Origin: Ignavibacteria bacterium | Lineage (GTDB): Bacteria; Bacteroidota; Ignavibacteria; UBA10030; F1-140-MAGs086 | Length of the DNA: 46,171 nucleotides | Direction: 5' to 3' | NCBI GenBank assembly: GCA_016873775.1 | Contig: VGWC01000012.1 | Span: forward strand, 1 to 46,171 | Shown: one piece after another, positions 42,954-46,171 of the stretch | Layout: every line of letters begins with the position of its first letter | Numbering within the stretch: position 1 is the stretch's first letter | Translations under genes and position numbers: made by a program | The notes under the pieces: model-generated | Database searches by the model: none | What the model was told of the DNA's origin: nothing | Seen by the model: the letters and a program-made list of their open reading frames with translations, nothing else

Positions 42954-42985
42954 TTAAATATAAAGAATGATAGGAGTTTCAGAAA
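42954..42985 (-). promoter_or_regulatory. Putative promoter of the DUF2723-GT4 operon
   Basis: On the minus strand TTTC (42982-42985), a 19-base spacer and TATATTTAA (42954-42962) precede ACGC, close to the window's other promoters apart from TTTC for TTTG. The predicted start near 42947 leaves about 36 bases before the ATG at 42911. Confidence 0.45.
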
Positions 42986-43063
42986 GGAATGAAAAAATAT
43001 TATTTTTTCATGCTATAACAACGTTTAGTTTAAAAAAATTTCAAGTTCTACAAGAATTTTCTC

Positions 43064-43095
43064 TTGTTCCTTCACATTCCTTTCTGTATTTTCAC
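43064..43095 (+). promoter_or_regulatory. Possible promoter of the MFS transporter gene
   Basis: TTG (43064-43066), 20 bases, then TATTTTCAC (43087-43095) resemble the tRNA-cluster promoter (TATATTCAC). The distance to the ATG at 43129 fits a short leader. The match is partial. Confidence 0.35.
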
Positions 43096-43128
43096 ATCGC
43101 TTTTTTTCAAAAAAATATATACAGCAAT

Positions 43129-44373
43129 ATGAACTTACAACAACTTCGCAACGGATTTCATTCAACGTTTTGGGTCGCCAACGGAATGGAACTTTTTGAA
43201 CGTCTTGCTTTTTACGGCTCGAAAGCTGTTCTAACCGTTTATCTTGCTAACAAAGTCGGCTTAGGTCCGCAAGTTGCCGCTTCACTTGCAGGAATTTTTT
43301 CCGGCGTGCTTTATTCGCTTCCTATTGTTGCAGGAACGTTTGTTGACCGCTATGGATTTCGCAAAAGTTTAATGGCATGTTTTGCAATATTTTGCGTCGG
43401 ATATTTTGCAATAGGGTTAGCAGGAATGGAATATGGGCAAAGTATTGTAAACGCGGTGGGAAAAACACCATACGTTATTTTCGTTTTACTGCTCACTGCG
43501 ATTGGCGGTTCGCTTATTAAACCGTGTATTGTCGGTACAGTTGCGAAAACTACAACGCCGGATTCCAAATCGCTCGGTTATTCGATTTATTATATGCTTG
43601 TGAACATTGGCGGCGCAATAGGACCAATTATTGCGCTTCAAGTGCGGGAAAGTTTAGGAATTGAATTTGTTCTTGTAATGTCGTCGTTCGTTTCTGCGCT
43701 TAATTTACTCGGCACGTATTTGTTTTTCAAAGAACCGCCAAAAGCAACTGATGAAAAACCGACAACATCTCTCGGAGAAGTTTTCAAAAATATGTTAATG
43801 GTTTTTACGAACGGAAAATTTATTTTGTTCCTCGTTATCTTTTCCGGTTTCTGGATAATGTTCTGGCAAATATTTTATTCCTTCCCGTTTTTTGTAACGG
43901 AAATTTTAAAGTTTCCGCAGTTTGAAATTCTCGAAACCGTTGATGCATGGACAATTATTTTGCTCAGCGTTCCGCTTACAGCATTTGCGAAACGACTTTC
44001 TCCGATTGTCGGAATGACGCTCGGTTTTGCAATTGCAAGTTTTTCGTGGCTGCTGCTTGCCTTTGCGCCCACTATTCCGTTTGCAATTGCTGCGATGGTT
44101 TTATTTGCAATCGGCGAAGCAACACAAGCGCCGCGCTTTTACGAATACGTTGCCGACCTCGCCCCGAAAGAACAAGTAGGAACGTATATGGGATTTGCAT
44201 TTCTTCCTGTTGCGATTGGTTCGTTTGTTGCGGGACCGCTTGCCGGTTGGCTTGTTGCAAATTACATTCAAGGTTCACACAACCCTGCAATGGCGTGGTA
44301 TATTTTATCGGGAATTGGTTTTGGCTCAACGGCATTGATGGTGTTGTATAATGCGATGGTTGCGAAAAAATAG
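43129..44373 (+). CDS. Major facilitator transporter, POT/PTR2-like
   Basis: Inner-membrane transporter of 414 residues with about twelve hydrophobic helices. The start FWVANGMELFERLAFYGSKA resembles the E-x-x-E-R-x-x-x-Y-G motif of proton-dependent oligopeptide transporters. Loop 2-3 is AGTFVDRYGFRKSLMA, the MFS signature. IGGSLIKPCIVGTVA in helix 4 also fits POT members. ATG 43129 is chosen; the frame is open 54 codons further upstream, but that sequence is not membrane-transporter-like and would overlap the promoter region. The substrate (peptide or other) cannot be told. The Cas12f gene begins 52 bases downstream on the same strand. Confidence 0.8.
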   Translation: MNLQQLRNGFHSTFWVANGMELFERLAFYGSKAVLTVYLANKVGLGPQVAASLAGIFSGVLYSLPIVAGTFVDRYGFRKSLMACFAIFCVGYFAIGLAGMEYGQSIVNAVGKTPYVIFVLLLTAIGGSLIKPCIVGTVAKTTTPDSKSLGYSIYYMLVNIGGAIGPIIALQVRESLGIEFVLVMSSFVSALNLLGTYLFFKEPPKATDEKPTTSLGEVFKNMLMVFTNGKFILFLVIFSGFWIMFWQIFYSFPFFVTEILKFPQFEILETVDAWTIILLSVPLTAFAKRLSPIVGMTLGFAIASFSWLLLAFAPTIPFAIAAMVLFAIGEATQAPRFYEYVADLAPKEQVGTYMGFAFLPVAIGSFVAGPLAGWLVANYIQGSHNPAMAWYILSGIGFGSTALMVLYNAMVAKK

Positions 44374-44425: not shown

Positions 44426-45844
44426 ATGGTAATTACTCGAAAAATAGAATTGTGGATTGCAGAAGAAGATAAAACCAAGAGAAATGAAACCTGGGATTTT
44501 CTTCGCATGCTTGATAAAGAAATCTTCCGTGCGGCAAACGTTGTTGTGAACAATCAATACTTCAATGATTTTTATGAAGAGCGAATAATCCAGCAAGATG
44601 AAAAAATCGGTGATGTAAGTAAAAAAATACGCTTGCTATATTCTAAACTTCGCAAAGCTAACGATGAAGAACAGCAATCTCTCCAAAACGAAATTGAGAT
44701 ATTGAAAGAACAAAAGAAAGAATCACAAACGCGTGTTCGTTCCGAGTTTTACAAAACAAGCAAACAAAACACAACATACCAGATTCTTACAAAACAATTT
44801 CCTGAAATTCCCTCTGATATTTTAACGTGTCTTAACAATCAAATTTATAGTGTCATTGGAAAAGAGAAGAAAGAAGTTTTGCAAGGGAAACGTTCTATTC
44901 GTTCGTACAGAAAAGGAATGCCGATTCCGTTTCGTTTTGCACAACATCCACGATTAGAATTTTTTGAAAACGAATATTACTTACGTTGGCTGAATAACAT
45001 TTCGTTCGTTCTTCGCTTTGGACGCGACAAAAGCAACAATAGAGCAATTCTCGAAAAAATTTTTTCCAAAGAATACAAACTGTGCGATTCTTCGATACAG
45101 ATTGACGACAGAAAAATTTTTTTGCTACTCGTTGTTGATATTCCGAAAAGCGAACACAACCTGAACAAAGAACTTTCCGTCGGCGTGGATTTAGGATTGA
45201 ACGTTCCTGCGTATTGCGCATTGTCCGAAGGATTTGCGCGGCTCGCCATTGGACACAAAGATGATTTTGTGCGTGTGCGGCAACAAATGCAACGACGAAG
45301 AAAAGCGTTACAAAAATCGCTCGTGCTTACTTCGGGAGGAAAAGGAAGAACAAGGAAGTTGAAAGCACTTGATGCTTTGGGAGAAAAAGAACGGCATTTT
45401 GTGCGAACGTATAATCACACCGTAGCAAAACGCATTGTCGAGTTTGCAGAAAAGTATAATGCCGGAGTAATTACAATGGAACTTCTCGAAGGATATGGCA
45501 AAGACGAAAACGGAAAATCGCGTAAAGGAGATTTTGTGTTGCGCAACTGGTCGTATTTTGAATTGCAAACATTACTCAAAGACAAAGCGGGAAGAAAAGG
45601 AATGGACGTTGTATTTATTGACCCGTACCATACAAGCCAAACGTGCGCTCTGTGCGGACATTACGAAATCGGACAACGCGAAACACAAGCAAATTTTATT
45701 TGTAAAAATCCCGTATGCAAAAACTTTGACGAAAAAGTAAACGCAGATTACAATGCTGCGCTGAACATAGCACGGAGCAAAAAATTTGTAGCAAAAAAAG
45801 AAGAATGTGAATATTTCAAACTTCATAAAGAAACTCGTTCTTGA
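44426..45844 (+). CDS. cas12f: Cas12f-type miniature CRISPR nuclease (type V-F)
   Basis: RNA-guided DNA nuclease of 472 residues, in the size range of Cas12f1 proteins (about 400-700). The RuvC triad is intact: Asp255 in VGVDLGLNVPAYCAL, Glu352 in VITMELLEGYG and Asp441 in NADYNAALNIAR. The target-nucleic-acid-binding zinc ribbon between RuvC II and III has Cys407/Cys410 and Cys426/Cys431. The N-terminal half (WED/REC-like) includes GKRSIRSYRKGMPIPF (154-169) and IFSKEYKLCDSSIQIDDRK (212-230), both with close counterparts at the same places in AsCas12f1. Residues 55-108 form a charged predicted coiled coil. GAGGTGAT precedes the ATG. A tracrRNA candidate and a CRISPR array follow on the same strand, which argues against a plain TnpB transposon protein. 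No adaptation genes are in view. Family assignment is by remembered sequence pattern. Confidence 0.85.
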   Translation: MVITRKIELWIAEEDKTKRNETWDFLRMLDKEIFRAANVVVNNQYFNDFYEERIIQQDEKIGDVSKKIRLLYSKLRKANDEEQQSLQNEIEILKEQKKESQTRVRSEFYKTSKQNTTYQILTKQFPEIPSDILTCLNNQIYSVIGKEKKEVLQGKRSIRSYRKGMPIPFRFAQHPRLEFFENEYYLRWLNNISFVLRFGRDKSNNRAILEKIFSKEYKLCDSSIQIDDRKIFLLLVVDIPKSEHNLNKELSVGVDLGLNVPAYCALSEGFARLAIGHKDDFVRVRQQMQRRRKALQKSLVLTSGGKGRTRKLKALDALGEKERHFVRTYNHTVAKRIVEFAEKYNAGVITMELLEGYGKDENGKSRKGDFVLRNWSYFELQTLLKDKAGRKGMDVVFIDPYHTSQTCALCGHYEIGQRETQANFICKNPVCKNFDEKVNADYNAALNIARSKKFVAKKEECEYFKLHKETRS

Positions 45845-45849
45845 TTTGC

Positions 45850-45858
45850 TATATTAAC
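45850..45858 (+). promoter_or_regulatory. Possible -10 box for the tracrRNA
   Basis: TATATTAAC followed by CGCGC starts 6 bases after the cas12f stop and resembles TATATTTAC-CCGC of the rpoD promoter. No TTTG lies at the proper distance upstream. It would start an RNA near 45865. Confidence 0.3.
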
Positions 45859-45884
45859 CGCGCAAAATTTTTTAAATAATAAAT

Positions 45885-46042
45885 TTTCTATCCTTAAAAA
45901 TCAGGATAGCGGCACGGGTGGTTTCAGATTGTCGCCGATATGACATTCACACAAGCGTTTGTAAACAGTTGTGTCATCCGAAGTGTGAGAGAAGAAATTC
46001 TACTCATCAATTCCAAACAAATAACATTTTGTGAGCATTTTT
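45885..46042 (+). ncRNA. Candidate tracrRNA of the Cas12f system (ends approximate)
   Basis: Noncoding stretch between cas12f and the array with four ordered elements. First, a hairpin CTATCCT (45888-45894)/AGGATAG (45903-45909). Second, a stem GCGGC (45909-45913)/GTCGC (45931-45935) whose loop holds GTTTCA (45921-45926), complementary to TGAAAC at the 3' end of the repeat. Third, a longer stem ATGACA (45940-45945)/TGTCAT (45972-45977). Fourth, the anti-repeat TTCC (46011-46014) plus CAAATAAC (46018-46025), complementary to repeat positions 25-28 and 14-21. TTTTT at 46038-46042 could end the RNA. This order (loop for a pseudoknot, stem, anti-repeat) is the one known for Cas12f1 tracrRNA. AACTTCC at 46061-46067 also matches the repeat's complement and is an alternative anti-repeat piece. 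Folding was done by eye. Confidence 0.7.
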
Positions 46043-46094
46043 CTTGATGAAAACGTGTGGAACTTCCAGACTGTATTGGATATAGAGAAAATAG

Positions 46095-46171
46095 GTTGTA
46101 AGCAACAGTTATTTGCTAGGAAGTTGAAACAGATTTCTAAACAATCTCCTTGAAGTATCGTTGTAAGCAAC
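46095..46171 (+). CRISPR. Start of a CRISPR array (repeat, spacer, partial repeat)
   Basis: The first repeat is 46095-46130, 36 bases, starting GTTGTAAGCAAC and ending AGGAAGTTGAAAC. A 29-base spacer follows (46131-46159). The sequence GTTGTAAGCAAC then returns exactly at 46160-46171, where the window ends. Repeat length, spacing of 65 bases and the GAAAC end fit a type V array, with crRNA read in the same direction as cas12f. Only one complete repeat is visible, so the repeat's 3' boundary rests on its typical ending and on the pairing with the tracrRNA candidate. Confidence 0.8.

What the first reader, a model, noticed from the sequence alone, without database searches (positions are those of the whole stretch)
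44426..46171. Compact type V-F CRISPR locus (Cas12f, tracrRNA, array) in an FCB-group chromosome
A 472-residue nuclease with an intact RuvC triad (Asp255, Glu352, Asp441) and zinc ribbon is followed on the same strand by a structured noncoding stretch and then a CRISPR array. The Cas12f1 proteins I know best come from archaea of the DPANN group and from Firmicutes; one from this bacterial group, with its own guide RNA, would be new to me. This is the strongest candidate for an undescribed system in the window.
Basis: partly seen in the sequence, partly recalled or inferred. Interest (0 to 1): 0.88.

Follow-up and report, generated by a model that had tools for sequence, protein, structure and literature searches.

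The report
Compact Cas12f CRISPR locus, cut short
The end of this bacterial contig carries a small CRISPR nuclease (Cas12f) with its guide-RNA gene and the first repeat-spacer unit of its array; it is a genuine but distant new member of a family already known from the same phylum, and the contig stops before the array can be read.

Summary
The finding is real in kind but not new in kind. ORF 44426-45844 (472 aa) is a nuclease-intact Cas12f of the V-F1 (V-U3) group. Evidence: PADLOC Cas12f 370 bits; best solved relative Al3Cas12f from Alistipes, E 1.5e-102; AlphaFold model Z 27.8 to Al3Cas12f against 18.9 for the best TnpB; D255/E352/D441 and the zinc cysteines present. Downstream, a covariance model built only from relatives' tracrRNA cores finds one match in the whole window, 45915-46014 (E 7e-5). 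It is followed by an anti-repeat, a 36-nt repeat (46095-46130), a 29-nt spacer and the first 12 nt of a second repeat. The contig then ends, so the 'array' is one full repeat plus a third of another. No continuation contig and no Cas1 were found in the 97.7%-complete genome. Particular here: no relative over about 46% identity, a host outside class Bacteroidia (inferred), a 49-nt insert in the tracrRNA apical loop, and no other clear Cas12f among 391 sampled genomes of its class.

The parts
44426..45844 (+). cas12f gene, 472 aa, RuvC triad D255/E352/D441, zinc ribbon (TNB) residues 377-448
   Evidence: ORF; PADLOC Cas12f 4e-111; PDB Al3Cas12f 1.5e-102; triad; AlphaFold and structure comparison
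45844..45880 (+). putative promoter element of the tracrRNA: ATTTGCTATATTAACCGCGCAAAATTTTTTAAATAAT, nearly the same as the sequence just upstream of a tRNA-Val gene elsewhere in the genome
   Evidence: alignment; tRNA-Val location; CCGCGCAAAATTTTTT occurs exactly only at these two places in the genome. Promoter function is inferred
45915..46014 (+). tracrRNA core: helix 1 (45915-45919 with 45976-45980), helix 2 (45984-45989 with 46003-46008)
   Evidence: covariance model R1 built from 18 relatives without the window: 25.8 bits, E 2.8e-6 in 1.9 kb, E 6.9e-5 and the only match in the whole window
45927..45975 (+). 49-nt insert in the apical loop of tracrRNA helix 1, predicted to form two hairpins; two Phycisphaerae relatives (L045, L055) also carry an insert here
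46007..46037 (+). anti-repeat, directly after tracrRNA helix 2; includes CAAATAAC (46018-46025), which pairs with GTTATTTG of the repeat
   Evidence: duplex -18.9 kcal/mol; reached by 0.05% of shuffles of the anti-repeat and 0.45% of shuffles of the repeat; same position in relatives
46095..46130 (+). CRISPR repeat 1, GTTGTAAGCAACAGTTATTTGCTAGGAAGTTGAAAC (36 nt)
   Evidence: 36-nt repeats with 65-66-nt period next to relatives' cas12f genes
46131..46159 (+). spacer 1 (29 nt); no exact match of its first 21 nt in IMG/VR, no convincing match in phage records
46160..46171 (+). first 12 nt of repeat 2, cut by the contig end

Best explanation
A chromosomal type V-F1 CRISPR-Cas locus in the minimal order cas12f - tracrRNA - array, without its own adaptation genes. 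Most likely the array transcript pairs with the tracrRNA anti-repeat; a Cas12f dimer binds the tracrRNA:crRNA and uses the roughly 20-nt guide to find double-stranded DNA next to a 5' PAM (T- or C-rich, not determined), then cuts both strands with one RuvC site to defend against mobile DNA. Shown here: nuclease family, intact catalytic residues, tracrRNA core, anti-repeat/repeat complementarity, one full repeat-spacer unit. Inferred from characterised relatives: dimerisation, PAM, cleavage, defence role, transcription from a stable-RNA-like promoter.
For: PADLOC Cas12f/Cas12u3 at 370/366 bits over the whole length, where a TnpB from the same order scores 49/51 bits on the same models. phmmer: Al3Cas12f 347 bits, CnCas12f 273 bits. 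Structure comparison: Al3Cas12f Z 27.8, best TnpB Z 18.9. The tree places it among Cas12f, apart from two TnpB outgroup rows by a 100/99 branch. tracrRNA core found by a model built without the window; that model also finds the core beside cas12f in held-out loci, and its two helices covary. Anti-repeat directly after the core as in relatives. 65-nt repeat period as in relatives. Activity of relatives: PMC13186708, PMC7229846.
Against: Only 1.33 repeats are readable. No Cas1 in the genome, so the array may be static. No protospacer was found. Anti-repeat pairing is not significant when the whole 250-nt intergenic stretch is allowed as target (19.5% of shuffles); only the position-specific test is. 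Nothing was tested biochemically.
Confidence: 0.9

Rival explanations
1. A TnpB of an IS200/IS605 or IS607 element with an omega RNA; the 'repeats' are chance.
For: NCBIfam guided_TnpB scores 173 bits, over its cut-off; Cas12f and TnpB are related; the sequence beyond the contig end is unknown.
Against: Cas12f models score about 370 bits; fold and sequence nearest to Al3Cas12f and CnCas12f; the tree separates it from two TnpB rows; tracrRNA core and anti-repeat present; upstream neighbour is an MFS transporter, no TnpA seen; single copy in the genome.
Confidence: 0.03
2. A fixed single-guide system: nuclease-intact Cas12f with one guide and no real array, as the related loci L012/L014 seem to have, used for regulation or maintenance rather than adaptive defence.
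For: The nearest proteins in the tree (L012/L014, support 93/67) have no array; no Cas1; only one full repeat visible.
Against: The window has a classical 36-nt repeat, a separate anti-repeat and a second repeat start at 65 nt; L012/L014 have a short hairpin there instead.
Confidence: 0.05
3. A degenerate remnant: the array or gene no longer works.
For: No adaptation genes; no other clear Cas12f among 391 sampled genomes of the class.
Against: ORF full length, triad and zinc cysteines intact; tracrRNA and anti-repeat intact.
Confidence: 0.07

Closest known systems
Al3Cas12f (Alistipes sp., PDB 9NZO/9NZR; PMC13186708)
   Same: Full-length homology (42% identity over 451 aligned residues), intact RuvC and zinc ribbon, long REC helices, tracrRNA between gene and array, 65-66-nt repeat period in its clade.
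   Different: Gut Bacteroidales clade; the window protein falls outside that clade (branch support 99/98); repeat sequence differs; the window's tracrRNA has an extra 49-nt loop insert.
CnCas12f1 (Clostridium novyi, PDB 8HR5)
   Same: Same V-F1/V-U3 family, 38% identity over 449 residues.
   Different: Bacillota clade; PAM of the window enzyme unknown.
Array-less Cas12f loci in Arcicella / Cytophagales MAGs (L012, L014)
   Same: 44-45% identical protein with intact triad; same tracrRNA core.
   Different: No CRISPR array downstream; a short hairpin where the anti-repeat would be.
dCas12f of Flavobacteria (PDB 9N9C; L059-L091, L005-L011)
   Same: About 26-32% identity and the same tracrRNA core.
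   Different: C-terminus truncated, no TNB, the catalytic glutamate and usually the first aspartate lost; the window enzyme is nuclease-intact.
TnpB (ISDra2; PMC8612924)
   Same: RuvC/TNB core, RNA-guided nuclease ancestry.
   Different: Guide comes from the transposon right end, not from a CRISPR array; lower profile and structure scores.

Membership tests
Type V-F CRISPR-Cas (Cas12f1, V-U3) | Compact (400-700 aa) effector matching Cas12f profiles over its whole length, better than TnpB | tested here: met
Type V-F CRISPR-Cas (Cas12f1, V-U3) | Intact tri-split RuvC (D, E, D) and zinc ribbon | tested here: met
   D255, E352, D441, C407, C410, C426, C431
Type V-F CRISPR-Cas (Cas12f1, V-U3) | tracrRNA encoded beside the gene, with an anti-repeat | tested here: met
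   expression not tested
Type V-F CRISPR-Cas (Cas12f1, V-U3) | CRISPR array with several repeats and unique spacers | tested here: inconclusive
   one full repeat, one spacer, 12 nt of a second repeat; contig ends
Type V-F CRISPR-Cas (Cas12f1, V-U3) | Phylogenetic placement with Cas12f, not TnpB | tested here: met
   a 100/99 branch separates two TnpB rows; one long-branch TnpB row (L136) fell with L045, and the tool warns that long rows are placed unsurely; the exact position within Cas12f is weakly supported
Type V-F CRISPR-Cas (Cas12f1, V-U3) | Asymmetric dimer, PAM-dependent dsDNA cleavage | not testable with these tools
   known for relatives (PMC13186708, PMC7229846)
IS200/IS605 TnpB | Transposon end and omega RNA immediately downstream, TnpA partner | tested here: inconclusive
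   no transposase beside the gene on the upstream side; the side beyond 46171 is not available
dCas12f (RNA-guided transcription) | Loss of RuvC catalytic residues and of the TNB domain | tested here: not met
   all present in the window protein

The most novel reading that the evidence does not exclude
The window enzyme and the array-less Arcicella/Cytophagales enzymes form one lineage in which CRISPR-encoded dual guides gave way to fixed single guide RNAs while the nuclease stayed intact, which would make it a living neighbour of the kind of transition that also produced the nuclease-dead dCas12f transcription regulators.
Probability: 0.12. Interest if true: 0.55.

Novelty: new member of a known kind. 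Interest (0 to 1): 0.3.

Why it matters
It adds a deep, nuclease-intact branch (at most about 46% identity to any relative found) to the Cas12f family, from a host group in which Cas12f is rare, with an enlarged natural guide RNA. That is useful for mining compact editors and for mapping how CRISPR Cas12f, array-less Cas12f and dCas12f relate. It does not change what is known about type V-F systems.

Tried and rejected
Repeat register: I first read the repeat as ending in GTTGTAAGCAAC; the two upstream 24-mers do not match. Reading it as starting with GTTGT, as in relatives L103/L045/L055, gives a clean 36-nt repeat and 29-nt spacer. Whole-intergenic duplex test: not significant; the position-specific test was used instead and is reported with that caveat. 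Simple motif match to relatives' core (GTCCGAAGGGKGAGG, 3 mismatches): expected 0.54 by chance, useless alone; replaced by the covariance model. Rfam: no family reached E 1. Single-sequence scans of genome and viral contigs found nothing; only the three-sequence profile did. Continuation of the array in other contigs: none. A third GTTGTAAGCAAC on contig C27 lies in unrelated sequence and is taken as chance. Protospacer: none in IMG/VR (21-nt exact); an 18-nt phage match at E 0.6 is not evidence. Exact repeat in viral contigs: none. The first quick tree had wrong-frame rows and was rebuilt. The exact host class could not be named, because the genome collection is unnamed. Three searches for a paper on dCas12f and sigma factors found none in the library.

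Full report
What is there. The window is the whole of contig C12 of a 2.54-Mb, 157-contig genome (97.7% complete), and its right end is the contig end. The contig is ordinary chromosome: it holds rpoB and tRNA genes. The last genes are an MFS transporter (42967-44373) and, 52 nt later, a 472-aa ORF (44426-45844).

The protein. PADLOC's Cas12f and Cas12u3 models match over the full length at 370 and 366 bits. NCBIfam's broad guided-TnpB model also passes its cut-off at 173 bits, as expected for a Cas12f. A TnpB from the same order scores only 49 and 51 bits on the two top Cas12f models. Among solved structures the best are Al3Cas12f (E 1.5e-102), CnCas12f (2.7e-80), RhCas12f (2.5e-65) and the nuclease-dead dCas12f (6.6e-48). 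D255, E352 and D441 are invariant against Al3Cas12f and CnCas12f and in 22 Cas12f sequences, and the zinc cysteines are present. An AlphaFold model (mean pLDDT 87) is nearest to Al3Cas12f (Z 27.8, 414 residues, rmsd 4.0), with the best TnpB at Z 18.9. A tree of 56 proteins puts the window in the Cas12f part, outside the Bacteroidales (Al3) and Bacillota (Cn) clades. Its join with two Cytophagales proteins is weak (93/67). One long-branch TnpB row (L136) was placed beside L045 in that tree; the tool itself warns that such placements are unsure. No relative exceeds about 46% identity.

The guide RNA. Relatives have a conserved tracrRNA core just after the gene: a GGGC...GCCC hairpin, then a GAG...CUC helix. 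In 18 relatives these two helices pair in 92% of cells, with changes on both sides at 7 of 11 pairs; slid controls reach at most 53%. A covariance model of that core, built without the window, gives exactly one match in the window: 45915-46014, 25.8 bits, E 6.9e-5 (2.8e-6 when only the last 1.9 kb is searched). As a calibration, it also finds the core beside the gene in most of the held-out loci searched. The window's version has a 49-nt insert in the first hairpin's loop; Phycisphaerae loci L045 and L055 have an insert in the same place. Directly after helix 2 comes an anti-repeat (46007-46037) that pairs with most of the repeat (-18.9 kcal/mol). Relatives L033, L037, L041, L045, L055 and others have theirs in the same place. 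Shuffling gives 0.05-0.45% for that stretch, but about 20% when the whole 250-nt intergenic region may pair, so this evidence is moderate.

The array. The repeat is GTTGTAAGCAACAGTTATTTGCTAGGAAGTTGAAAC (46095-46130). A 29-nt spacer and the first 12 nt of a second repeat follow, then the contig ends. A 12-nt exact match at 55-75-nt spacing was reached in 0 of 2000 shuffles. Relatives have 36-nt repeats with a 65-66-nt period. The rest of the array is not in the assembly. No Cas1 was found in the genome; PMC7229846 notes that only some V-F loci carry an adaptation module.

How it probably works. By family knowledge (PMC7229846, PMC13186708): crRNA pairs with tracrRNA, a Cas12f dimer binds the duplex, finds a PAM-flanked target and cuts both DNA strands. 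None of this was tested for this enzyme. The sequence just before the tracrRNA nearly repeats the stretch upstream of a tRNA-Val gene in the same genome, which suggests a stable-RNA promoter (inference).

Is it new? It is not: Al3Cas12f from Alistipes (Bacteroidota) is published with activity in human cells and cryo-EM structures (PMC13186708). The GTDB scan returns 27 Bacteroidota loci (L012, L014, L015, L018-L041) with nuclease-type Cas12f, many with tracrRNA and arrays, including the isolate Phocaeicola coprocola DSM 17136. In the window's phylum the other seven matches among 395 sampled genomes are all truncated, dCas12f-like proteins. Since some of these sit inside the Weeksellaceae clade of the tree yet share only the phylum with the window's genome, the host is most likely a Bacteroidota (GTDB sense) outside class Bacteroidia; this is inferred. 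In its own class, 391 genomes gave no other clear Cas12f (best other match 70 bits). So this is a new, deep member of a known kind. Interest is modest.

Noticed in passing
L012 6001-7600 and L014 6001-7600: Near-identical nuclease-intact Cas12f in an Arcicella and a Cytophagales MAG, with the tracrRNA core but no CRISPR array; a short hairpin sits where the anti-repeat would be, followed by a conserved inverted repeat (AAGATTTTACC...GGTAAATCTT). Possibly natural single guide RNAs.
   Followed up: partly
L005-L011, L059-L091: Truncated, catalytically dead dCas12f proteins; all six of these loci that were searched (L005-L008, L059, L061) have the same tracrRNA-like core beside the gene.
   Followed up: partly
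window 45844-45880: Element CCGCGCAAAATTTTTT shared exactly only with the stretch before a tRNA-Val gene on contig C9: a likely stable-RNA promoter of this organism.
   Followed up: partly
L043 5618-7665: Neomarinimicrobiota cas12f flanked by at least five copies of the tracrRNA-like core, one of them upstream; no exact-repeat array detected.
   Followed up: no
L047 7060-7108 and 7600-7648: Two tracrRNA-core matches downstream of one cas12f gene in a Butyrivibrio MAG.
   Followed up: no
L016 7156-7794, L017 136-475, L116-L118 7493-7703: cas12f beside arrays with 28-29-nt repeats and 61-nt period, which look like type I-E repeats rather than 36-nt type V-F repeats; a shared or borrowed array is possible.
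   Followed up: no
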